A DNA stretch of 64,000 nucleotides from Pythium myriotylum (taxonomy: Eukaryota; Oomycota; Peronosporomycetes; Pythiales; Pythiaceae), in NCBI GenBank assembly GCA_023091665.1, contig JALJCQ010000030.1:2501-66500 (forward strand), in the 5' to 3' direction. Position 1 is the first letter of the stretch, and each line of letters begins with the position of its first letter. Below are positions 46,642 to 62,963 of this stretch, one piece after another. Both the position numbers and the translations under genes were made by a program. The notes below the pieces were generated by a model, which made no database searches, was not told the origin of the DNA, and was given only the letters and a program-made list of their open reading frames with translations.

Positions 46642-47122
46642 CGAGACGATCGTTTGCTTGTTTAGTTGCGTGCCGTTTGTGGAATGAGGGACGAATGACC
46701 AGGACGTTGACGACGAAGATGAGTGAACCCACTAATTCCTCAGTTGATGGGTGCAATAATGATGCGTGTCCACGTGTCACTTTCCCGGGGGTCCCAGGAA
46801 TGAGTTGGATCGATACCGTTTTCCTTACATGATTACCGTAAATGGAAAAGGCAGACCAAGTGGACTTGAACTTGACCATCTCTCGCTGGCAATCTGAGAA
46901 CGAGCTCACTCTCCGGACTCCGCATCTGGAATGTCGTCCATGGAGCGTCCAGATATCTCAACGAGGTCGGGCCATCCAGTCGTTCATATCACGAGTCACT
47001 ACAGTAGATCTATCAACTGAGCTTCGCGGTTGGTCTCTCTTTCCTTCGTGTGTGAACCGAGACCTTCGTGCGAACCGACATCTTCATAAACCAATTTGCC
47101 TCGACTTGTCGCCAGCTGCAAC
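46642..47122. other. Divergent promoter region
   Basis: 480 bp between the RBR gene and a PAN gene. No repeats or genes seen. Confidence 0.5.
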
Positions 47123-47719
47123 ATGAACTTACTCTCTTCTATCGTCGCGGCTACGCTTCTCGCTGCTGGTTGCACGGCTGCATCAGCTGAAGGTCTCGCT
47201 GCGAACACGACTCGCAACTTGGCGTTTGCCCGTCGAACTTGCGTCTACGGTCTCATGAGCTACAACTTTGTGGGCGGCGACGTCGCTAACACGAATGGAA
47301 ACTCGGGGTCTTGCACCCAAGCGTGTCTCCAGCACCCGCTCTGTACTGCTCACACGTGGTCCGACTACAACGGCGGCACGTGCTGGCTGAAGAACCCTGC
47401 TGAGTACATTGCGACGTATGAGGAAGGCTCCATCAGTACCTTCGTGCGAAGCTTGTACGTCGACTCGTGTCCCCCTATTCGAATTATTTGGCAGAACAGA
47501 GACTTCCAAGGCGATGACATCGCGAACGCGAAAGGGAGCGACGTTGTCGACTGCTACGCTCAGTGTCGCGGGATCAGCGGATGCTGGGCATACACATGGA
47601 GCAACTACAACGGCGGATGGTGCTGGTTCAAGAACGCCAACGCTCTGAAGCTGGCCAAAACGGTGTATGCGGCGGGGAAGAACTCGGGTATCATCGCGCA
47701 AACGAAGGAAGTCGCTTGA
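47123..47719 (+). CDS. Secreted protein with two PAN/Apple domains
   Basis: 198 residues. Signal peptide MNLLSSIVAATLLAAGCTAA; the ATG at 47123 is chosen over one 27 bases upstream for that reason. Two repeats: TCVYGLMSYNFVGGD ... TWSDYNGGTCWLKNP and IIWQNRDFQGDDIA ... YTWSNYNGGWCWFKN. It is most like the gene at 49325 (shared EEGSISTFVRS/EEGSISTYIQQ and DFxGDD segments). The two, with their neighbouring kinase copies, look like a duplicated block. Confidence 0.88.
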   Translation: MNLLSSIVAATLLAAGCTAASAEGLAANTTRNLAFARRTCVYGLMSYNFVGGDVANTNGNSGSCTQACLQHPLCTAHTWSDYNGGTCWLKNPAEYIATYEEGSISTFVRSLYVDSCPPIRIIWQNRDFQGDDIANAKGSDVVDCYAQCRGISGCWAYTWSNYNGGWCWFKNANALKLAKTVYAAGKNSGIIAQTKEVA

Positions 47720-47867: not shown

Positions 47868-48830
47868 TCAAGGAGTCAATATCCTTGTACTAAAAACAGA
47901 ACGGAGGTAGTATGGAATATTCCCACTCACCGCCCCGCAAACGGGCATCACAACAGAGTACACATCCGAATAAAACATTGGCTTCGTCTTGAACCACTCA
48001 GAATCCCGCCAACAAATCGCACTAGTAGTGGTATTGTCCACCGTCGTTCCTCTGCCGTCGTCTATCACCAACATGTTGTTGAGCTTGAGGTCCCCGTGGC
48101 CCATGCGTGGCCCAATGCAGCCTGGTATAGAAGCCGCCATCTCTCGTCCGGATAACTCACGAGTTAACTCACCATGTCGCCATTCTTCGCAAAATTGCAC
48201 ACGACGAATGGCGGCTCGCTTGCGTGACAGGTGCCGATCTGACCACACGCGGATGCGATAGCGTGAGCCCGATCTCCACCTCACTACCGACTGTGACGAT
48301 ATCATCGTCTCGTAGAACCCATTAGTCAACATCGGCTCGCAGTGCTTTGTCGTAATCTGCCGTGGAAATATCAATGATGGACTTCGAATCCGAATCGTTC
48401 GACTGCTGGGATACTTCCAGGATGCTGACCAGCCCGCGAACACCTTCACCATAATCACAAACCTCACTATGCAGCGCCTCGAGCAATCCCGTGAGTCTCT
48501 CTGCATCAACCATTCCTGTCGCGACCATCGCGTCCAACTAATACTGTATCGCTCTATCAATCAAATCACTCTCCCGATCTTCACCGCAAACTGCTTGATG
48601 AGCTTCTCGCCTGGCATCTTCAGAAGACGCTTCTGGTCGATCGCCGTCTTCAGCAAGTCCCGCATGACGCTGACCCATCAGCATACATGTATTCGCCTCG
48701 TGGACCTGGGTTCCGCCATTTGCATCGCAGCACCGATGATCATTCCAGCGGCGCCAGCAGCGGGAAGCGTCGACGCGATTGGCTCAGTCATCGGAAGAAG
48801 GTGGACCGGCACAGTGGGAGGATCTTGAGC
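47868..48830 (-). pseudogene. Decayed copy of the giant-kinase N-terminal region
   Basis: Minus-strand fragments match the first part of the 49973 gene in order. A piece near 48600-48680 resembles its TAIDDKRPLTMPHEKL region. VDAERLTGLLEALHSE (about 48490) matches its VDAERLAAEIQALHGG, and GHGDLKLNNMLVIDDG (about 48060-48105) matches its kinase loop HGDLKLNNILVMEDG. FKTKPMFYSDVYS (about 47950-47990) is a further match. The matches fall in different frames with stops between, and the ATP-binding part is unreadable. It is a non-functional duplicate in inverted orientation. Confidence 0.8.
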
Positions 48831-49324
48831 TCATCTCGTGCTGATGAGCTCATCACCGCACATTCTACCTGAGGTATTGATATAAGGCGATGTTCGAGGA
48901 GCCAAAATTTGTGTTCGATGGCGGTTGCTCGCTTCGATTGCTGCTGCCTCGACGTGCATTGACTGCCAGTCATGGACGTGTGCCTCGTCTCCAGGAATAG
49001 GTGGCACGCATGGTCACCAACGAAGATCCTCTGTCTCGATATCGGAACCTGCGACGATTACTGTTTAGTCACTGGCACTGACCCACGAGTGACTAGTACG
49101 GTAACGCATTCAACGTGAAGCTGCGACTATCCGCCAGCAACTCAGATGCTGTCAAAGCTTCAAATCGCATCGTTCCTCCACGAGCAGTTGCCAGTCAAGC
49201 TCGTTCCCTCCTCGGGCTTCTCCCCACCACCAGGGCAGCTTCCTCGCCTCCACTCGTGGTGACTGCTCTACGGCGATGGCCTCCAGTCAGCCACTTTCCA
49301 AATCGCCCTCAAGCAAACCACGCC
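48831..49324. other. Intergenic, nothing recognised
   Basis: Upstream region of the fourth PAN gene. No coding signature beyond the open frame leading into it. Confidence 0.45.
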
Positions 49325-49930
49325 ATGCAAGTCCTCGTCACCACCGCCGCTCTTCTCTCATCGCTGGTGCTTTCCTCAGTGGCGCAGCACGACCCTCTCT
49401 CGTCATCCAACGGAACTGAGCCGCGCCGTCTCGCTTTCGCACTGCGAACGTGCACCTACGGCTTCAGCAGCTTCAACTTCGTCGGTGGTGACATCGAGAA
49501 CGTGCAAGGCTCGGTGAGTCGCTGTGGCCCGGTGTGTCGCCAGATTCCGACCTGCACTGCGTACACCTGGACCGACTACAACGGCGGCACGTGCTGGCTC
49601 AAGCGACCTGCCGAGTACCAGCTCAGCTACGAGGAAGGCTCGATTAGCACGTACATCCAGCAGCACTACGCTGACTCATGCCCGATCATCCGTATCAACT
49701 GGCGGGATCGCGACTTTGAAGGCGACGACCTCTCCAACGCGAGAGGAACCGACGCCGTCGACTGCTACGGCCAGTGCCGCACACTGAAAGGCTGCTGGGC
49801 TTTCACGTGGAGCAACTACAATGGTGGCACGTGCTGGTTCAAGAACGCCAACGCGCTTCGGCTCGCCAAGACTGCCTACGCTCCGGGCAAGCACTCAGGC
49901 ATTCTCGCACAGACGAATGAGATTCCCTGA
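49325..49930 (+). CDS. Secreted protein with two PAN/Apple domains
   Basis: 201 residues. Signal peptide MQVLVTTAALLSSLVLSSVA; the frame is open upstream to 49115 but that part has no signal-like start. Two PAN/Apple repeats end in YTWTDYNGGTCWLKRP and FTWSNYNGGTCWFKN. Its stop lies only 42 bp before the first ATG of the giant kinase gene on the same strand, an unusually tight spacing. It is a paralogue of 47123-47719. Confidence 0.88.
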   Translation: MQVLVTTAALLSSLVLSSVAQHDPLSSSNGTEPRRLAFALRTCTYGFSSFNFVGGDIENVQGSVSRCGPVCRQIPTCTAYTWTDYNGGTCWLKRPAEYQLSYEEGSISTYIQQHYADSCPIIRINWRDRDFEGDDLSNARGTDAVDCYGQCRTLKGCWAFTWSNYNGGTCWFKNANALRLAKTAYAPGKHSGILAQTNEIP

Positions 49931-49972
49931 GAAGCCTCTTGTTTCAGTACTGACTCTCCCCAAATTGATATC

Positions 49973-52900
49973 ATGAACCCAATGGGCTCTCACGCTCTTC
50001 CATCTCACTTCTCGTCTTCTTGCCGCCTGATCATGCGAGTTGATGACTACGTTGTTGGCGCTACGGGGCTAAGCTTCGCCGCTACACTCAACGATGCCAC
50101 GCGACTCGCACGCCATGAGCATGAGGTCCACGAGGCTTCGCTGGTGCTGGTCCCACTGGTGCGCCGGTTCCGCGCCACGCGAGACTCGCTGCAGACCGCT
50201 ATCGACGACAAGCGTCCTCTCACCATGCCCCACGAGAAGCTCGTCGAGCAGTTCGCAGTGGAGATCGAGAAACTGATCCGACTGGTCAAGAAACAGAAGA
50301 ACGCGACGCTCGCGACCAGAGTCGTTGATGCAGAGAGGCTCGCGGCCGAGATCCAGGCTCTACATGGCGGCATGGGCGATAATGGAACCTGCACGAGCGG
50401 TCTGAGTCATATCCACAGCTCGATCGGCGAGCAGGATGACGAAGCGTGGCGCAGAGACGTCGACACCGCTATATCCGACTACAAGCAGGCACTGCGCGAG
50501 GCCGTCGACACGTGTCTCCCCGACATGGAGCGCGATCCGGCGATGGTTCGTGAGGCTCTCATCTTACTGGAGCATGAGAAGAAACGTGGTCTCTTGTCAA
50601 CCCTAGGCGAGCACCTGTGGGGTCGCATACGAACGCTCGCGCCGGCAGACGTGATCGAGGTGCCTGCGTGGTTCATCTCGGAGAGCGATATCGTCTTCAC
50701 GAGCCGAGTCTTTGACCGTGGAGGCTTCGCAACCATCCACCACGCGACGTGGGACGGCTCCACCGTCGTAACCAAAGTTCTACGAGATGCTGATATGGCC
50801 ACGTTCGCTCATGAGGTGGAGATCGGGTTCAAGCTATCGCATCCGCATGTGGTCAAGATCTACGGTGCCTGCCACACGAGCGAGCCGCCGTTCATCGTGT
50901 GCGAGTTTGCGAAGAACGGCAACATGGGGAATTACTTGGTGAGCCACCCGGACGAGAAATGGAGGCTGCTGTACGAGGCTGCGCTGGGTCTGCGCTTCCT
51001 TCATCGGAACAAGATCGTCCACGGAGACCTCAAGCTCAACAATATTTTGGTGATGGAAGACGGGAAGGCCAAGATTGCCAACTTTGGGTTGAGTCGACGG
51101 AAAGAGACGAGCAAGGCGACGACGCTGGCAGACAATACGAGTACCGGTGCGATTCGTTGGCGAGCACCCGAGTGTTTCAAGACGAAACCCACGTTCCAGT
51201 CGGACGTGTACTCTTTTGGGATGTGTATGTACGAAGCGGTGAGTGGGAAGGTTCCATACGAGGATATTGACTCCTTGGGATCTGTGGAGAAGTTGATTCG
51301 TGAAGGGGAGCTTCCGACGTGGCCGGCGGATAATGTCGCGAGTAGTGCGCAGCGGCTTTTTCAACAGATGTCGCGACTGGAGAAGGAAGATCGTATTGAT
51401 TTGGAGAGTGCGATCATTGAATTGAAGATACTCGCAGATGAAGAACTACAGCTGAAGTGTTCCTTTCTACCGTCTACTATCGAGGATGGAAATGTCGGTG
51501 GTGTGGGGGACTCGTCTTTCATATTGGATTCTGAATCACGCGCGGTTAGAAGCAAACTCGATACTGGTTCAGTCGATGGCAGTGCTGCAAACAACGATTA
51601 TGAAGGAATTGCTGTTGTATCAGATACGAATCCTGAGTTTGAAGAAACTCGAAAGGCTTTTGTCCTTCATCTCATTCAGGTGCTAGTGACCGGATCTGAG
51701 AATGAAAAGGTCCAGGCAGCATTCCAGCTCGCCAACATCGCGGCCAATTCAAATGACGCACGACAGACATTTGTAGACGCTGGTGCGATTTCACCGCTCG
51801 TTCAACTACTCACGACAGGACCCGACGCACAGAAGCTTCAAGCGTCAATTTGTCTCGGCAACATAGCAGCCGGGTCGCTTGAACGAACTACGATGATCAT
51901 AGCAGCGGGTGCGCTTGATCCATTGCTCGAATACCTAGGTAGCGGCTCCGATAGGGGCAAAGCATATGCCGCGTCAACAATTGCCAACCTCGCAGGAACT
52001 TCACCGGAAATCTGTGCCGCCATCGTGGACGCGGGTGGGATCTTGTTGCTGCACCGATTGCTTGATAGCGGAGTTGATGGAGGTAAATTGAACGCGGTGA
52101 TTGCGCTAAGCCAGCTGACAACCTACTCCCCCGAGCGTGTGGCCAGCACCGGCGTGATCCACTCGCTGGTCGACTTTCTGGCGACCGCTTCCGACCAAGA
52201 ATCGTATAATGTGTCTGTCATTCTGGGAAATCTTGCTGCGAACTCTCCGGAGCGAAGTGCACAAATAGCAAAAGCGGGTGGCATTGCTGCTCTTACTCGG
52301 GTGCTCGAAACCGCAACCCCGGCCACAGAGACGAGTCTCGCAGGGACACTGTGCAATCTTGCTGCTTGCTCGGAGGAACGGAGTTTGGAGATGGTCCGGG
52401 TTGGTGTCGTTGAACTCCTTCTTGGTTTGATCGACAGAGGCACAGAGGAAGGCCAGGCGAACGCCGCAGGGGCACTCGCAAACATCACTAGCAGCTCTCC
52501 AAAGTGTGCGGCTGCTGTCAAAGAGGCGGGTGGAGTCGCTCCACTTCTGCGCTTGATGAACGTCGGAACGTCAGGGGGTCGAGTAATCGCAATGCAAGCA
52601 CTCGGTCCTTTGCTCGAGTCTTCCGTGCGCCCAGCACCTGAGAGCGAAAAAGTGATGGCAACAACGAGGATTTCCGATTATGTTATCGACGTGACCGTCA
52701 AGGACGAAAGAACAGTGCGCAAGGTACTCGAGCACGTTGGCACGCTTGTCCAAGAGCTCAAAGTTGGGACTGCAACCTTCAAAAAGACATACGAGGATCT
52801 CACACTACTTCTCACCGAGCTGGAGAGTGTTCAGAAGCGCAACGGCAAAATTGCCGTCGCAACCGTGAACAAGTACGTGTACACGCTCGAAGAGTACTGG

Positions 52901-55900
52901 CGGCGCCTACAGGCGTACAGGGAAATGAACATCGTCGAGCGCATCCTCAACCACCGCAAGCTGCGCGCGACCATCGAGTCGGTGAACGTGAGCGTCGACC
53001 AGCTCTTCCAGGTGGTCGGGCTCGCAACCACGGGCGTGCTCATGGACTGGCGCAAACAGTACGAAAAAGATATGATCGAACAGCAGCAAGCGATGGAACA
53101 GGTCACCCGGAACGCGGTAAAGATGCTGGCCGAGCTGCAGGGCATCCACGAGCAGAAGGACGCCATCGTGCTGCTCAAGGATGCTATAGACAAGATGCGC
53201 CTCGGCGAGTCTGATCTTGCGCCCGAGTCCCAAGCCGCCGTCAAGAACGCCTTCGGCACCATCATTCGGACATCCAACATCGCAGTTCCTGATGTACCGA
53301 AGTGGTTCATTCAGGAGGCCGACATCACATTCAACGAGCGGCCTTTCGGCCGAGGCGCATTTGGCGCCGTTCACCGCGGCACGCTGAAGGACCACACGAA
53401 AGTCGTGATCAAGATGCTGCTGCCGGGCGAGACCGGTCTCGATGCGCAGCTCCAGAAGGCATTTCTGCACGAAGTGGATCTATGGAACACGTTCAACCAC
53501 CCGCACGTGGTGCGAATGCTCGGGGCGTGCCATGTTTCCAAGCGTCCTTATATCGTTTGCGAGGACGCAACGAACAGGAACATGGCCGACTATCTCGATC
53601 GATCTCCAGAAAACAGGAAGCATATATGGAGGCTCCTCTACGAAGCTGTTCAGGGTATTGCGTACCTGCACAGCAAAAACATCGTCCACGGAGATTTAAA
53701 ACTCAACAACATCCTTGTAAGCGCCGATGGCAGGGCGCTGGTTACGGATTTCGGTCTTTCACGGATCAAGAACGAGTCGAAATCCAAGTCCATGACGGCG
53801 CGAAAGGACGGTCAAATGGTCGAAGGCGGTCTGCGATGGCGCGCTCCAGAGCTGGAAAGGTTCCTTGCGCAGCCAGCGTCCGACGTGTTTTCATTTGGGA
53901 TGTGCATTCTAGAGGCTTTTCTTGGCGAGCCCGCATACGCATATCTGGATGATGACAGCGTGAGAAATAAATTCTCGAATGGAGAGCTTCCAGCACGACC
54001 CGAGTCCATGTCCTATGATGCATGGGAGCTTGTGCGGAAGATGGCAGTTCCGGATCCAAGGGATCGTATCGAGCTGGCTGACGTGATAACTAGACTCCAG
54101 GAGTTTTGCGATCTCGAACTCCAGGAGCGTCTTAGCAGTACGTTGTTGCGTGACAAGTGTTTCGTGGATCTGCCTGCCGTCACTCCAGGTTTGGTCACTG
54201 TTGCTAAGATAGCGCTGACACATGACACGCCCAGTGAGAAAGATCTCGACGACAGCCAGGATGTGACAAGAAATGTTGACGCTAACGTTAGCAACGAGCC
54301 CCCTTTGTCGAACCATTCACCCCATCCCAGAGATACTAATCTGCGTTTACTAGACGAGGCAAAGGGCGCAGTTCCAGCTGAAGTTGCCATGCCACCCCAG
54401 CATGCTTGGTCTCGAAGGTATTGGTTCGATGAAATAGTGTCTTGTTCCGAGAGCGAGAAAGGGGAAATCATACGGCAGCTTCGTGACCTTGTTCAAGAAC
54501 ATCCAGCAACGGTTGAAGAGATCGATTGTGTCGGATGCATGGAGATGCTCTTCGAACAAAGCAATCTTGACAGCCTGACCTCACAAAATCAGGTGTGTTC
54601 ATCATCACTGGTAAGCGGATTCTGAACGTCAGCTAATGCGTGTACATCGGAAGGCACTCCTGTTCTGGGCTGTTTACGCTGGCAGTGTCAACCAAATCTC
54701 TGATCTCCTCGCTCAAGGTGCTCCAGTCAATGGAGTGAACAAGGTTCGATTCGATATATCGCATCGACATAATTGTCTCTGCCCGACTTGCTCGATCTGC
54801 TTGGTATATAGAACCTCGAGACCCCGCTTCATATCGCGTGCAAACATGGCGATGAAGGCAAGGTTGCAATTCTTATCCAGAACGGTGCCATCACAGGCAG
54901 GCTGAACAAGGTGCGATGACATTTGGGAATGCTGTTTTTGCAATACTTGCAGGAGACTAATCAGAGCACAAAACTCTTGGTGGTATGTGTAGGATTTCCT
55001 CACACCCCTTCACGTATTGATTTTAAGGCACTTGAAGTGCAACCAGCGTGAGGAAGCAACCGAGTTCTGGAAGTGCCTGAGCATTCTGATATCCCATGGA
55101 GCTGTATGGGACGAAACCTGTGACGAGATACTGGCTCAAGGGAGTCACAATTTACCAATCATGCGAGCAGACGCTTCATCTGATGGTGCAGCATTGAGCA
55201 CAACAAGGGCTTACAAATCGCTCGTGGCTGCAGTAGGTTCTCTTCGCCAGCGCGGGTGGCTACGGTCATCTGCGGTTGTACCGATTGATGTGATGCATGA
55301 TGACCCGCTCTCTGTGATAGCATACACTGCTGACCTCATGGCCTCAAGCCCTCTTCACACAACAGTTTACCACAGAGTCTGCGTTCTCGGGGCAAATTGT
55401 ACTTCGAGTATCTTGGAGTTGTTTGGGGAAACTCAAGTTGATACAGGCTGTAACGATGCCTTGATTCGTCGAGTCAACTGGAGCTTCGAAGGGGCTCCAT
55501 TGCCTGAGCAGATCGAACGTGAGATACCTCTATGTCGAACTCACGATGTCACCTTTTGGGAGTTTCCTGATGGAGAAGAGTTCAACGTGGTCACCTCACT
55601 TCTACTTCCTCAGCGTTCTTTGTTCATTGTTACAGTGGACGTCGAGGCATTTTCGCAGCAATTGACAGCTTGCAGCTCCGCACCTTGCTCGTGCGGAGCG
55701 ACTCCTTCAAAGTCAGAGCTTACCACTGAGAGTTCTGTTAATGCTGGTGCCCCAGGCAATAACGACCGTGTGAACGAGCAAGAGTTGGTAGAGAAGTTCG
55801 TGCTTCGGTGGATCCGCCTCGTTGTTGCCAGCCAACCCGATTCAAACATCGTTTTGGTTCTCATGAACGCGGAACGAATCGTAGAAAGTCACAGTGACCT

Positions 55901-58900
55901 AATTGCCAAGCTGATGTCGGAAGTGGCTGAGTTCAAGACACACTACGAAAAGGCAATCGAGCGAGATTTGAAGCTCGTCGCGTCAAGTGTTCAGCCTGTT
56001 TGCAATGAGCATGACGATATCGAGTTGCGTCTTGATCACCTACAACAACTGAAGAACAAGGTAAATCAGATTTCATTGGAACCAATACTTGTATCAGCAA
56101 CCGATAGCCAGCTCGATGTGTGGAAGCAAATCATACTTTCGAAATCAACAGGAATCCAGCTTTCTAATTCGACCAAGCGAGTTCTTAACAGCATTCGAGA
56201 GCAGGAGCGAAACGACAAATTTAACGTTGGGGTATTCACAAAGTTCGACATACTTCTCACTGAGCTTGAGAAGAGGTTTCACGATTTTGATTCGAGTTTG
56301 TATCCGTCAATCATTCGGGATCTTCATGAATTGGGCGAAGTTCTCGACCTTCGTATTAAGGGCGAAAAGCACGGTGATGTGGTGACAAACTCCCTCCTAT
56401 TTGCAGATCTTGGCTACTCAATGGTCCAGTGCTCACGAGAATCATATCGAGTTGGAGATGATCTGCTTGATAGTAATGAAGCATGGGCAAGACTTGACTA
56501 TCAGTCGAAGCAATCGGTCAAGTCAATTTTTAGGCGAACTTTGGTAGCGTTTCCTCTCACAGACGCAAAAGCGGTGTCGCAAGAAGCCAATCCGAACCTG
56601 AAACAAAGCCTTTTTGTTCCATCTGCGTGGACACCCTCTACGGAGCATCATCAATCGGAGCACGAAGATGCTCCAATTATCTATACGTACATTATTGGAA
56701 TCTTTCCGCCATCGACATTTGTGAGAGAGCTTGCTGTTGCTCTACATTCGGATTCGTTGTCGCTCTACCCGACTGTTCATCCTGATCGAATCGAGATGAA
56801 CCTTCACGAGTCAATCTTTCGACTCACTTTTCTCGCTGATTGCGAAGGCTTTGCTGTTCAACTGAGAGCGGTCAACGTGGATTCGAAGACGCTAAACTCT
56901 GATGAGCAAAGCGATAAGTACAGATCAGCAGTCCACTCAAGGCAGACAATCCGTTTGCTCATGCATGCAGCTGTTCAAGCAGTGATGCACAAATTCCACG
57001 GTCTGTGGAAACTCGAGAAGGCGGGATGGATTCCATTAGACTGGGCTATTCATGAAGTCATTGGCAAGATCCCACGTGATAAGATGCTCGGAGTTCAAGA
57101 GAAGCTTCTTGTACGGAGTATTTGTATACTGGGCTCGAGTCGTGCGGGAAAGACGACTCTGGTCAAGTCTCTCGTTTCCAATACCCCGTCCCTTGTGCAT
57201 TCTGACGAGCGTACGGTTGGAGTAGATATCACTTCGGCTTGCTTCTTAAAAAGTGACTCGTCTGGGTTTGCCACAGAGCGATACTTTGTCTCCTTTTACG
57301 ACTTCGCCGGCAACGATGATCTCCAGTCGCTCCAAGAAATGTTCTTCTCTGACCGATCACTATTTATTCTTTGTATCGATCTTCACGCGTATACAGTCGC
57401 ATACGAACAAGTACGATTCCGCTTTGACGACGACAGCATTGCGACGGTCAAGATGAAGGAGTTGGTTAAGAGGAAAGTGCTCCGGTGGATCCACATGATC
57501 TTTGACAAAGTGGTGAATGGGAAGTGCATAATAGTTTGCACCAAGCGAGACAAATTCAAGGGCGCCACAGCTCGCCTGGAACGCATGGAAGCTGAGTTGA
57601 GAACGACTATCAACAGGTGCTTTGATGATGTCATTGGGGAGTATAAAACTCGCATCCAAAACGTACTTCTTGAGGCTGACAAGAGGCACTCTCAGCCAGA
57701 TGCGACAAGTTTTTTTATTCCCTGGAAACTGAGAAAGGAGGATCCAGCTCGTCGTCTCCGAAGACAATTGGAGCATATCGTTGATCAACAACGAAAGATA
57801 GAACGTGCTGAATGGCTCGCTCTGAGTTGTGCGACAACACGTGGAGTGATTGATGCGCAGCGAAAAATCGAAAGTCACGCTGGCCGCGAATGCCGCCATA
57901 TCATGATGCCACCTACATATGCGCGAGCATTGATGCTCATCGACTCGTGGAGACGAAACCCTGCGATGATCACTAAGGGATCCTCTCACAGACAGCGTTG
58001 TGACCATCCGTTGATCGTGCCAAGGGACTGTCTGGCGCATCAGCTAGCTCTCATCCAGACAGGGAACGGACGCGAAGTTCTAAAGTTGCTGAAAGAAACA
58101 AGTATCATCGTCACGTTCGAAAATCTGGGAGTCCACGACGTGGAACCAGATATGTTCATTTTGGATCCCCAGGTGGTTGTGGAGACCTTTCGCCAAGTTG
58201 TAATTCGCAAGATCAAGTCTGAGCTGCTTGAACATGATCAGTTCATCAAGCTCCCGCTGCCGTATTGGGGCTTCCAAATGCTCCAGCCGAGTCGGAAGAT
58301 TGCTTGGAAGCGAGCACTTCAGTACTTTCGCGTCGCACACCCCGTCGGCGAATCCATCGATGTGACATGTAACCTACTGGTGCCAAGTTACTGGCCCAAA
58401 CTACCCTATTACTACAGTCAAGTCCCAATTATCGAGCAAGGTCAACTTCCTCGCCACGTTGTATGGGCCTACGCGTCGGAGAATATTCAATTGGAGCAGT
58501 CATCATCAGCGAAGACCCTGCTAAGAAAACTTTTCCACGAGTTTGCGATCAAGAGCTACTCAACTCACCAGCGTCTTGTACAAGAGGAAGTGATTACACA
58601 CCGGCGACCATTCGTTGGCCAGTCAGGCGATGTGAAATTTATGTGCCAGGTTCGCCTGACAACGTGGGGTGACAACAATAATCCTGCTATTACGGTTGAA
58701 GCTGTTGGAGGTGATAGCCGAGGAATCGGTTGGCATTTCTTCGAGGACGCTTGCTCAACGTTGAACGACCTTCTTCGCGACCAGGGGCACACAATTACTT
58801 GTTACGCTGAAGTTGATCCAAGGCCGCGATGTTGGCAAGCCACAGGCGTACCTCTTCAATCCCTACGCGTGAAGGACGTGGTTGCTCAGCTCTCCAGACG

Positions 58901-58985
58901 CGATGTCAACTCAGGTCGAGCCTCGCATCTTGAGACCACGGAGGAGAGCTGGCTGCCACCTAGCCTTGGTTGGTGGAAGCTGTAG
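49973..58985 (+). CDS. Giant pseudokinase-ARM-kinase-ankyrin-double ROC protein
   Basis: Four exons, 49973-54592, 54654-54743, 54812-54910, 54993-58985, with GT-AG introns of 61, 68 and 82 bp, all phase 0, give about 2933 residues (2913 if the ATG at 50033 is used). Order: helical adaptor; TKL kinase 1 (about 239-489) with HGDLKLNN but NFG in place of DFG and a degraded glycine loop; ARM repeats (about 576-882); a second adaptor; kinase 2 (about 1118-1379) with GRGAFGAV, VIK, HGDLKLNN and DFG intact. Then come ankyrin repeats (about 1541-1612), a ROC-like domain with degenerate P-loop (about 1731), and a ROC domain with GSSRAGKTT (about 2312), DFAG and TKRD, followed by a COR-like region. The two adaptor-kinase halves are internal duplicates (VPAWFISESDIVF versus VPKWFIQEADITF). 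Likely a cytoplasmic signalling scaffold; ligand and substrate unknown. Separate genes remain possible if the first intron is not used. Confidence 0.8.
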
Positions 58986-60266: not shown

Positions 60267-62196
60267 CTACGGAATCAAAGTACACACGAACTGGGGGATC
60301 TTCGTCATCTGGGCCGCGTAGCGAGCGTCACGAGCAGGCTGTCCATTCTTCGCCCATGCTCTCACCGCGCTGTTCCACCATCGGTCCTTCATCTGGTCTG
60401 GAGTTGGGCGCTTCGTGATCGCAGCCAACAGTTGACTGACGGTTTTGATCGAGTATGTCTTCCCGAGATTCTCAGCAGTGACCTTTCCAATGCCGTCCAC
60501 TTGAGTGAGTGGCTCATCGCCATTTGGCCCGGTACGAATGAGTTGTTGGCGCATGCATGAGGTCTCAATCTCCTGCGGGACAACGAAAACAAGCGCCGCG
60601 CGGCTCGGGTCCTCGGCGATCCTCTCGAGCATGCCGAGCTTGGAAAGCACGTGGATGAGTCCCGACGCGTTCACTGGGTGTTCTTTTGCGACAGTCACCT
60701 GGAAAAACACGATCTCGTGCTTTCTGCTCAGTTCCACACTCGCAGACGCTGCTGCGTCTCTCGTGGGGATGTAGAAAGAATCGATTGACTCCCAGTTGGC
60801 CGCCTTCGGGTGGTGATACGGCCCTCGCTTCGCAGTTGAAGTCGTCAGAGTGTGCTCTGTGTACACGTCGACAGGATCACTGCGTTCGATAGTGAGTTCA
60901 TGTGAACTTCCATCAGCAGACACAGCACGCAATCGAAGCGTGCAGCCACGGCCCAGACGTTCGTGCACATGGAGCTGCAACACCTTTTTCCAAACCGGAG
61001 CGGCTTCTTCGACCCTTTGAAGTAGATGAAGTAACTCTGCCTTGGCGTGACCGTGCTCCCTCAACATATTCGCTGTCAATTTTTCGATGACATACGGGGA
61101 TGCGAGTGTCCAATCATATACCACGCAGGTAGGATCTGGCATGTAGTACAGGAGTTTGGTCCGGATATGCGAATACTCCTTGTCATAAGGTAGCTTTTGC
61201 AAATCGACAACGCTTGAGATTGTAGCGGTAGCGCGGTTCAACTGGAAGTGAGCGTCGGCAACAGCTCTCGGGTAAAGACTGAAGCACTGTCTTGCGACCC
61301 CGCCGAACACATCGAATCTCTCCGTGATGATGTCGTTGGTTAAACGTCTTGCTTCTTCGTCTATCATCAAGCTGGCCGTTTCTTCATCCGCCGAGCGTCT
61401 AGATTCGTCGTCCAGTGCTTCTGATTTGCAATCCATGTTCTCATTATTCAGCCGACTCGCCTTGTTCTCGTTCATACGAGCAGCCGATGTTCCGTTGATC
61501 AATCGCATATCTAGCGCCAGTGCGGCCTCATGCAACTCGGTCAGCGTCCAGATGGGCATGTAGTAAGTGCACTCGTGCTTTTCAGCCGACCTCAGCCACG
61601 CTTCGTTTGGGCACGTGAACACCACACTCTGAGCTTCTGCCGGCCTGAAGTCAGGGGTTCCGTCGCAAAGGAACAAGACCTCTTCTCTTGCCGCTCTCGC
61701 CAAGGCCACAGCGTCGTCAATAATGCTGTCCACGCCAGATCTACGCGCGTAGCGTTTTGGCTCCGTGTTGCCCTTGAATATCACGAGCTCGCTCATTTTC
61801 TCTTTCTCGAAGTTCATGGTGAAGATCCATGTGTCCGGGAACTCGACTCGATATCGGCTCAAGAAGTACGAATAGAAAACCGACTTGCTGATGCCTATGA
61901 ATCGAAAAAATAAACCCAATGCCATCAGCACCGATAGTAACGCAGCATTCTCTCGCTCAGCTGAGTTGGATCATACCTGGAGTTCCGGTCATCGTCACGC
62001 ACCTCTCGTTTTCCATTCGTAGAAGGTGCTTCACGATCCCATAGTATTTGTCGTAGCATTCGCGCACGTAGTAGTATTTACCGATTTTGTATGTGTACAC
62101 CATCGGCACGGGCGGCATCAGGAGAACGTGGTCCTCGGGATTCCAGTAGCTCTCGGGATTCTCGAGTGGTGCATGGCGGTCACCAATGGCCACCAT
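60267..62196 (-). CDS. P-loop NTPase / REase-like protein with HhH, CRN-C-terminus type
   Basis: Two exons, 62196-61977 and 61894-60267, over an 82-bp GT-AG intron that rebuilds the Walker A loop as GTPGISKS; 615 residues. N-terminal VYTYKIGKYYYVRECYDKYY precedes the loop, as in RHS/CRN-type NTPases. The C-terminal part has WESIDSFYIP and EIVFFQVTVAKEHPVN, the Asp and QxT pattern of the restriction-endonuclease-like domain in those proteins. A helix-hairpin-helix follows (LTQVDGIGKVTAENLGKTYS), a DNA-binding motif. There is no CRN header domain and no signal peptide. A plausible DNA- or chromatin-acting protein; an upstream exon cannot be excluded because the frame is open above 62196. It shares the plan of the CRN at 17911 but differs throughout. 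Confidence 0.8.
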
Positions 62197-62450: not shown

Positions 62451-62963
62451 CAGAATGCAAGTGCTGTCCCAGGTTGACGCCAAGCGACGCGCGGGTCAGA
62501 AGTTCCCGGCGACGAGACCGACGAGCAAGACGCCAGAGAGGATGGTGTTGCCTTCCGACCGCGGAGCGGTCAGCGCAGGCGCGTCCGGCGAGTGACGGCG
62601 ACGCAGAAGTCTTCCGTGAAGCCTCACTCACAGGAAACGAATGCAGTTGAAATGAGAGGCTTCATCACCGATCATATCCAGGTTGCCATCAGACAGGGCC
62701 GGACGCGAAGAATTCTCGAGCTGAAGCAGGTGCCGGTACTATATGATTGCTACGTTCGAAAACTTTGGAGTCCACGACGTGGAGCCGAATATATTCATTT
62801 CGGACCTTCAGGTCGTTGTGGAGACTTTTTTTCCCGAGTTGTCATTTGCAAGATCAAATCTGAGCTGCTCGAACATGATCAGTTCATTTTGATGAACGTT
62901 TGGGAACCCCAGTCGAGTCGAAAGATTGCGTGGAGGCGCACTCATCAGCCTTTTGCAGTCTAG
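62451..62963 (+). pseudogene. Decayed ROCO COR-region copy with direct repeat 2
   Basis: 62451-62723 repeats 59601-59860. From 62720 the sequence follows the giant gene's 58090-58320 with many changes. Matches include TTCGAAAA...GGAGTCCACGACGTGGA, AAGATCAA(A/G)TCTGAGCTGCT and GAACATGATCAGTTCAT. Frames shift repeatedly and stops occur, so it is a dead paralogue fragment. Confidence 0.75.

What the first reader, a model, noticed from the sequence alone, without database searches (positions are those of the whole stretch)
49973..58985. One gene may join pseudokinase, ARM, kinase, ankyrin and double ROC GTPase
Three phase-0 GT-AG introns of typical local size connect the kinase frame to two ankyrin exons and then to a 1330-residue tandem-ROC frame, with no reading-frame repair needed. 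The first kinase has NFG for DFG while the second is intact, a regulator-plus-catalyst layout like JAK, here with GTPase domains (one with a dead-looking P-loop, one canonical). Pairing an inactive and an active kinase with an inactive and an active ROC in one chain is, to my knowledge, not a described architecture. Seen: frames, splice sites, motifs. Inferred: single transcript and regulation.
Basis: partly seen in the sequence, partly recalled or inferred. Interest (0 to 1): 0.85.

Follow-up and report, generated by a model that had tools for sequence, protein, structure and literature searches.

The report
Oomycete giant kinase–ROCO GTPase fusion
One oomycete gene probably makes a 2,900-residue signalling protein that joins a dead and a live kinase to a dead and a live ROCO GTPase, and sister genes in the same genome share the kinase-before-GTPase order that a review had described as specific to animals.

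Summary
The exons are real. Four exons (49973-54592, 54654-54743, 54812-54910, 54993-58985) read as 2,933 aa: helical region, pseudokinase (NFG), ARM repeats, MLKL_N-like bundle, kinase (DFG), ANK repeats, pseudo-ROC, COR, ROC, COR.

Introns 2 and 3 are firm: the spliced ANK region scores 1.4e-16, and a paralogue has the same 99-bp ANK exon. Intron 1, the only bridge between the kinase and ROCO halves, is inferred. Some phase-consistent joint arises in 500 of 500 shuffles, and an ATG at 54636 permits a two-gene model. The support is paralogues: one 1,121-aa frame carries kinase plus Roc; 4 of 24 other ROC loci examined have a same-strand kinase upstream; one of these splices fully in frame into ROC-COR-ROC-COR.

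Dead-ROC/live-ROC recurs in 5 of 7 long ROC frames aligned. Dead/live kinase does not. The order matches DAPK1, called metazoan only in PMC6337361. New variant of the ROCO family; no expression data; mechanism inferred.

The parts
49973..58985 (+). Whole gene, four exons, 2,933 residues; the real start may be the second ATG at 50033
   Evidence: Spliced translation without inner stop; start codon choice is inference
49973..50677 (+). N1: N-terminal helical region before K1; not detectably related to N2
   Evidence: No Pfam match there; BLASTP to N2 E 0.21
50705..51409 (+). K1: kinase domain with NFG for DFG (51080-51088); lysine and HGDLKLNN kept
   Evidence: PF07714 stretch 245-479; alignment to K2, 44% identity
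51665..52660 (+). Armadillo repeats
   Evidence: PF00514 1.7e-22, 4 stretches; limits approximate
52670..53299 (+). N2: MLKL_N-like helical bundle before K2
   Evidence: PF22215 E 0.046 and 0.0051, below its cut-off in the window; 5 of 6 aligned segments from 4 proteins match, best 1.1e-6
53339..54085 (+). K2: kinase with intact K, HGDLKLNN and DFG (53747-53755)
   Evidence: PF00069 stretch 1123-1371; motifs by eye
54086..54592 (+). Linker to the end of exon 1
   Evidence: No Pfam match; no BLAST hit to the C4 ARM frames
54593..54653 (+). Intron 1, the only bridge between the halves; alternative donor 54611; contains ATG 54636 in frame with exon 2
   Evidence: Sequence, ATG, shuffles
54654..54743 (+). 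Exon 2, ankyrin repeat
   Evidence: Spliced Ank_2 1.4e-16
54812..54910 (+). Exon 3, ankyrin repeat, 33 codons as in paralogue C4
54993..58985 (+). Exon 4: end of ANK, ROC1, COR1, ROC2, COR2
55374..56150 (+). ROC1, degenerate in all three G motifs looked at (GANCTSSI at 55389-55412)
56151..57113 (+). COR1, COR-like region
   Evidence: Profile match to COR2 98.5%, E 1.6e-15; not found by BLASTP (E 0.14)
57114..57680 (+). ROC2, intact Roc (GSSRAGKT at 57132-57155, DFAG, TKRD)
   Evidence: PF08477 2.5e-13; PDB matches to LRRK2 and bacterial Roc, best E 0.00018
57780..58982 (+). COR2, COR-like region
   Evidence: No COR match in the window; in paralogue L034 COR-A E 0.0016, 18.8 bits against a cut-off of 35.3

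Best explanation
One oomycete gene encodes a ROCO-type signalling protein of about 2,930 residues, one of several kinase-before-ROCO genes in this genome. Shown by sequence: domain order, degenerate motifs, and paralogues with kinase upstream of ROC in one frame or spliced in frame. Inferred: ARM and ANK repeats bind a ligand or partner; the two ROC-COR units form an internal (cis) version of the ROCO dimer in which ROC1 no longer binds nucleotide and only supports or senses ROC2; the GTP state of ROC2 is passed through COR to K2, as reported for DAPK1; K1 regulates K2; the MLKL_N-like bundle before K2 is re-positioned when the switch fires. My odds: single gene 0.8; ROC2 nucleotide controls K2 0.5; cis dimer 0.35; bundle as membrane or cell-death effector 0.2.
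For: In-frame four-exon model. ANK exons confirmed by spliced Pfam score and by a paralogue with matching exon limits (alignment score 138, best of 500 shuffles 50). Kinase and Roc in one 1,121-aa frame at C14. C24b: kinase-ARM exon joins ANK-ROC-COR-ROC-COR through two canonical introns, open from the upstream stop to the final stop. 4 of 24 other ROC loci have a same-strand kinase 0.2-5.3 kb upstream. The two-gene model leaves 10 bases between stop 54625 and ATG 54636. A recalled oomycete start-site motif (initiator type) was found near 49953 and 50005 with at most 3 mismatches but not in 54301-54700 (weak). ROC1 dead and ROC2 live in 5 of 7 aligned frames. DAPK1: GTP on Roc acts on the kinase, and ROCO proteins dimerise through COR (PMC6337361, passages).
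Against: No RNA evidence. Intron 1 is not confirmed by homology in any paralogue; exon structures at C24a, C24b and C14 differ from the window. 20 of 24 ROC loci have no such kinase, and the long ROC frames C17a and C12 stand without one, so an ANK-ROC-ROC gene can exist alone. In C4 one stop codon separates the kinase frame from the ARM-ANK frame. No fused relative was found in public proteins, with a word-based search of limited reach. COR domains are weak by Pfam. Both structure models were too poor to use (pLDDT 48 and 35).
Confidence: 0.7

Rival explanations
1. Two adjacent genes: a tandem-kinase gene ending at 54625 and an ANK-ROC-COR-ROC-COR gene starting at ATG 54636, possibly acting in one complex.
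For: In-frame ATG at 54636. Long ROC frames without an upstream kinase exist (C17a, C12). Frame connection alone is expected by chance. The composition differs between the kinase domains (GC3 0.64-0.75) and the ROCO half (mostly 0.46-0.56), though the linker at the end of exon 1 (0.50) resembles the ROCO half.
Against: Only 10 bases would separate stop and start, with the promoter inside the first gene. C14 is a single-frame kinase-Roc gene and C24b splices kinase-ARM in frame to ROC-ROC.
Confidence: 0.2
2. One gene, but the 'dead' domains are merely decaying: K1 and ROC1 have no regulatory role, and only K2 and ROC2 work.
For: Decayed copies of both halves lie next to the gene, so this locus tolerates decay. 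The NFG change is not shared by C4, whose first kinase has DFG.
Against: Degenerate ROC1 recurs in five paralogous frames that remain open over the whole length. K1 keeps its lysine and HGDLKLNN. Several oomycete multi-kinase proteins also have a kinase domain without HRD/DFG motifs ahead of an intact one.
Confidence: 0.3
3. A scaffold: nucleotide and phosphotransfer are minor, and the protein mainly assembles partners through ARM, ANK and COR.
For: Kinases next to ROC are degenerate in C24a and C24b, so fusions without an active kinase persist.
Against: K2 and ROC2 keep the catalytic motifs.
Confidence: 0.15

Closest known systems
DAPK1 (metazoan death-associated protein kinase, third ROCO group)
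   Same: Kinase before Roc-COR, no LRR (PMC6337361, passages); ankyrin repeats between them (recalled)
   Different: DAPK1 has a calmodulin-dependent kinase, one Roc-COR and a death domain; here TKL-like kinases, two ROC-COR units with the first dead, ARM repeats, and no death domain among the Pfam matches
LRRK1/LRRK2
   Same: ROCO plus a TKL-type kinase with ARM and ANK repeats; ROC2 matches LRRK2 Roc
   Different: LRRK kinase follows COR, with LRR and WD40; here the kinases precede ROC-COR and neither LRR nor WD40 was found
Oomycete multi-kinase TKL proteins (P0004 Lagenidium, P0008 Phytophthora rubi; kinase-ARM PITG_10645)
   Same: MLKL_N-like bundle, tandem kinases, ARM repeats (PMC3019232, passages)
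   Different: None of the 13 best hits lists Roc
ANK-ROCO proteins of oomycetes (PMC11378527, passages)
   Same: ANK repeats before ROC-COR in oomycetes
   Different: That paper gives at most four ROCO copies per SAR species such as oomycetes; a tandem dead/live ROC-COR is not mentioned in the passages seen
MLKL
   Same: MLKL_N-like bundle directly before a kinase domain (weak)
   Different: MLKL's own kinase domain is the dead one (recalled); here the bundle with the MLKL_N match precedes the intact kinase

Membership tests
ROCO (Roc-COR) proteins | Roc GTPase domain | tested here: met
   ROC2 PF08477 2.5e-13, 50.7 bits over cut-off 27
ROCO (Roc-COR) proteins | COR domain after Roc | tested here: inconclusive
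   No COR match in the window; COR-A E 0.0016 below cut-off in paralogue L034; repeats behind both ROCs match each other by profile but not by BLASTP
DAPK group | Kinase before Roc-COR, no LRR | tested here: met
   Domain order in the spliced model; depends on intron 1
DAPK group | Death domain | tested here: not met
   No death domain among Pfam matches up to E 1
DAPK group | Calmodulin-dependent kinase type | tested here: inconclusive
   PF07714 is the best Pfam family and B-Raf, BTK and designed ARM chains the best PDB matches; no kinase tree was made
LRRK | LRR, kinase after COR, WD40 | tested here: not met
   Kinases precede ROC; no LRR or WD40 match
MLKL | N-terminal four-helix bundle and brace | tested here: inconclusive
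   Weak MLKL_N match, 5 of 6 segments; model pLDDT 48
JAK-like pseudokinase-kinase pair | Dead kinase controlling a live one in cis | not testable with these tools
   Only NFG then DFG is seen
Oomycete TKL kinases | Closest kinase relatives are oomycete TKL-type proteins | tested here: met
Single transcription unit | Spliced RNA joining exons 1 and 2 | not testable with these tools
   No RNA data at hand

The most novel reading that the evidence does not exclude
A ROCO protein that carries its own dimer: a dead Roc-COR fused to a live Roc-COR in one chain, a pseudo-GTPase/GTPase pair kept across a gene family, which gates N-terminally fused MLKL_N-kinase modules. It would be a non-metazoan 'kinase before Roc-COR' class that arose independently of DAPK, possibly a cell-death or self/non-self switch in an oomycete whose ROC-bearing genes number in the dozens.
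Probability: 0.3. Interest if true: 0.82.

Novelty: new variant of a known kind. Interest (0 to 1): 0.6.

Why it matters
How ROCO proteins switch, and what dimerisation does for them, is debated and bears on LRRK2 and Parkinson's disease. A natural protein in which one half of the ROCO pair is dead and tethered in cis would let the roles of the two halves be told apart. It also puts the kinase-before-Roc-COR order outside animals, against the grouping in the 2019 review (PMC6337361), and points to far more ROC-bearing genes in an oomycete than the at most four per species reported in PMC11378527.

Tried and rejected
Frame continuity as proof of one gene: rejected, 500 of 500 shuffles give a usable joint.

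Homology of the post-K2 linker to the ARM region of C4: suspected by eye, no BLAST hit, dropped.

N1 as a second MLKL_N-like bundle: no Pfam match, BLASTP to N2 E 0.21; not claimed.

COR1-COR2 kinship by plain BLASTP: E 0.14, shuffle z 0.9; only the five-sequence profiles show it.

Relatives of the ROCO half in public proteins: one search gave only three ankyrins, none; the search needs shared 5-residue words, so absence is weak. The kinase-part search gave 84 proteins of 1,613 aa or more; none of the 13 best lists PF08477, nor does any visible list among the other 71, but several of those lists are cut in the display.

PDB search with the ROCO profile A1 showed only ankyrin and DARPin chains in the 60 rows listed of 596; uninformative for ROC.

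Structure prediction: two jobs, mean pLDDT 48 and 35; no fold search was run on them.

Genome-wide paralogue count by protein query: not obtained, since genome search answered only once. The 24 other loci examined were chosen by me from the 101 matches.

The species could not be named.

Full report
What is there. Exon 1 (49973-54592), exon 2 (54654-54743), exon 3 (54812-54910) and exon 4 (54993-58985) are joined by three GT-AG introns of 61, 68 and 82 nt, all phase 0, giving 2,933 residues. Pfam finds two kinases, ARM repeats and one Roc. ROC1 is not seen by Pfam but is a degenerate copy of ROC2: BLASTP E 5e-7 and profile comparison 99.0%, E 2.5e-18. The regions behind the two ROCs match each other by profile (98.5%, E 1.6e-15), though not by BLASTP (E 0.14). 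I read them as COR: in paralogue L034 the COR-A model matches at E 0.0016, below its cut-off; in the window it does not match. So exon 4 is best read as ANK end-ROC-COR-ROC-COR. Before K2 lies a helical region that matches MLKL_N weakly in the window (E 0.0051, below cut-off), while 5 of 6 aligned bundle-kinase segments from four proteins match, best 1.1e-6.

One gene or two. Introns 2 and 3 are secure. The spliced ankyrin stretch scores 1.4e-16; exon 2 alone scores 0.05 and exon 4 alone has no ankyrin match. Paralogue C4 (L034) can be read with an ANK exon of the same 33 codons followed by the same exon start (alignment score 138, best of 500 shuffles 50). Intron 1 carries the whole claim. 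That some joint keeps the frame means nothing: all 500 shuffles offer one. A two-gene model exists, with the stop of the exon-1 frame at 54625 and an in-frame ATG at 54636.

The case for one gene comes from the same genome, 58.7 Mb in 55 contigs. I examined 24 other ROC loci chosen, with 3.4 to 16.6 kb held upstream of the ROC match. 4 of the 24 have a kinase on the same strand within 8 kb upstream, at 0.2 to 5.3 kb. At C14 kinase and Roc share one uninterrupted 1,121-aa frame. At C24b a kinase-ARM exon runs through two canonical introns into ANK-ROC-COR-ROC-COR, open over 2,912 codons, about 2,808 from its likely ATG, with RyR domains in front. At C24a a shorter kinase exon ends in the same GAG|GTACGA donor and leads on through two canonical introns; its last joint to the ROC exon has many candidate sites and is uncertain. 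At C4 two kinase frames lie upstream, but a stop separates the first from the second, and one stop codon separates the second from the ARM-ANK frame that leads to the ROCs. I do not count C4 as a proven fusion. The other 20 of the 24 have no such kinase, among them the long ROC frames C17a and C12, so ROC-ROC can also stand alone.

What is conserved. ROC1 lacks the P-loop in the window, C4, C24a, C24b and C17a while ROC2 keeps GxxxxGK[ST]. In C12 ROC1 is dead and ROC2 has GRS for GKS. In C17b the ROC1 region is hardly recognisable. That makes 5 of 7 aligned long frames with the dead/live pair. The kinase pair is different: both C4 kinases have intact motifs, C24a has HGN for HGD, C24b has no DFG, C14 is intact.

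Relatives elsewhere. They are multi-kinase proteins, some with MLKL_N, ARM, ANK or TPR; none of these 13 lists Roc. Searches with the ROCO half found no ROCO relative, but that tool needs shared 5-residue words. Papers, all seen as passages only: PMC3019232 describes three dual-kinase proteins, 19 inactive TKLs, a kinase with ARM repeats and a RyR-bearing kinase in P. infestans. PMC11378527 reports ANK before ROCO in oomycetes, at most four ROCO copies per SAR species such as oomycetes, and N-terminal kinase domains in different organisms. PMC6337361 says DAPK1 is the only group with the kinase before RocCOR and is metazoan only. Searches for ROCO with pseudoGTPase (0 papers), oomycete with ROCO and kinase (9 papers), tandem or double ROC phrases (33 papers, 20 listed) and wider ones (148 papers, 20 listed, 12 listed, 12 listed) showed no title or abstract start that describes a tandem dead/live ROC-COR. 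Most of those papers I saw only as listings.

How it may work. ROCO proteins dimerise through COR, and in DAPK1 GTP on Roc acts on the kinase (PMC6337361, passages). With two ROC-COR units in one chain, the first without nucleotide-binding motifs, the simplest reading is an internal, asymmetric dimer: ROC1-COR1 as fixed partner, ROC2 as switch, the signal passed to K2. ARM and ANK would take the input. K1 keeps the lysine and the catalytic loop but has NFG, so it is likely catalytically weak and regulatory. The MLKL_N-like bundle invites a cell-death reading, which I rate at 0.2. All of this is inference; neither structure model helped.

Surroundings. A decayed inverted copy of N1-K1 (47910-48676, 68-73% DNA identity) sits upstream beside a duplicate of the PAN-domain gene, and a decayed COR2 piece (62743-62960) lies downstream. 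Composition is mosaic: GC3 is 0.64-0.75 in the N and kinase parts and 0.46-0.56 in the ARM repeats, linker, ROCs and CORs, which fits assembly from separate modules.

Verdict. A real and unusual member of the ROCO kind, very probably one gene. The order is DAPK-like without being a DAPK (no death domain found, doubled ROC-COR). The recurring dead/live ROC pair is the most interesting part.

Noticed in passing
47910-48676 (-): Decayed, frame-broken, inverted copy of N1-K1 (68-73% DNA identity), no Pfam match left
   Followed up: partly
62743-62960 (+): Decayed piece matching COR2 residues 2641-2717 in two frames, E 2.7e-16
   Followed up: partly
47090-47719 (+) and 49097-49930 (+): Two PAN-domain frames, 71% alike over 480 nt, one beside K1 and one beside the decayed K1 copy
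   Followed up: partly
Own genome G000, contig C12 about 3.6-4.14 Mb and elsewhere: 101 Roc-profile matches, 43 of them in open frames of 550 aa or more (42 frames, my count; some may be other GTPases), many clustered on C12; far above the four or fewer ROCO copies reported per SAR species
   Followed up: partly
L016 7130-9499 (+), continuing in L015 (locus C24b): RyR domains, degenerate kinase, ARM, ANK, ROC, COR, ROC, COR in one spliced frame
   Followed up: partly
L034 1315-4734 (+) (locus C4): Kinase frame followed in the same frame by an ARM-ANK frame behind a single stop codon; both C4 kinases are followed by a zinc-ribbon-like motif
   Followed up: partly
L013 1319-6049 (+) (locus C24a): Repeated DUF5763 / primase-type zinc-finger-like segment at the start of the ROC frame
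   Followed up: no
60267-61970 (-): 567-aa frame with only a weak helix-hairpin-helix match (E 0.0054)
   Followed up: no
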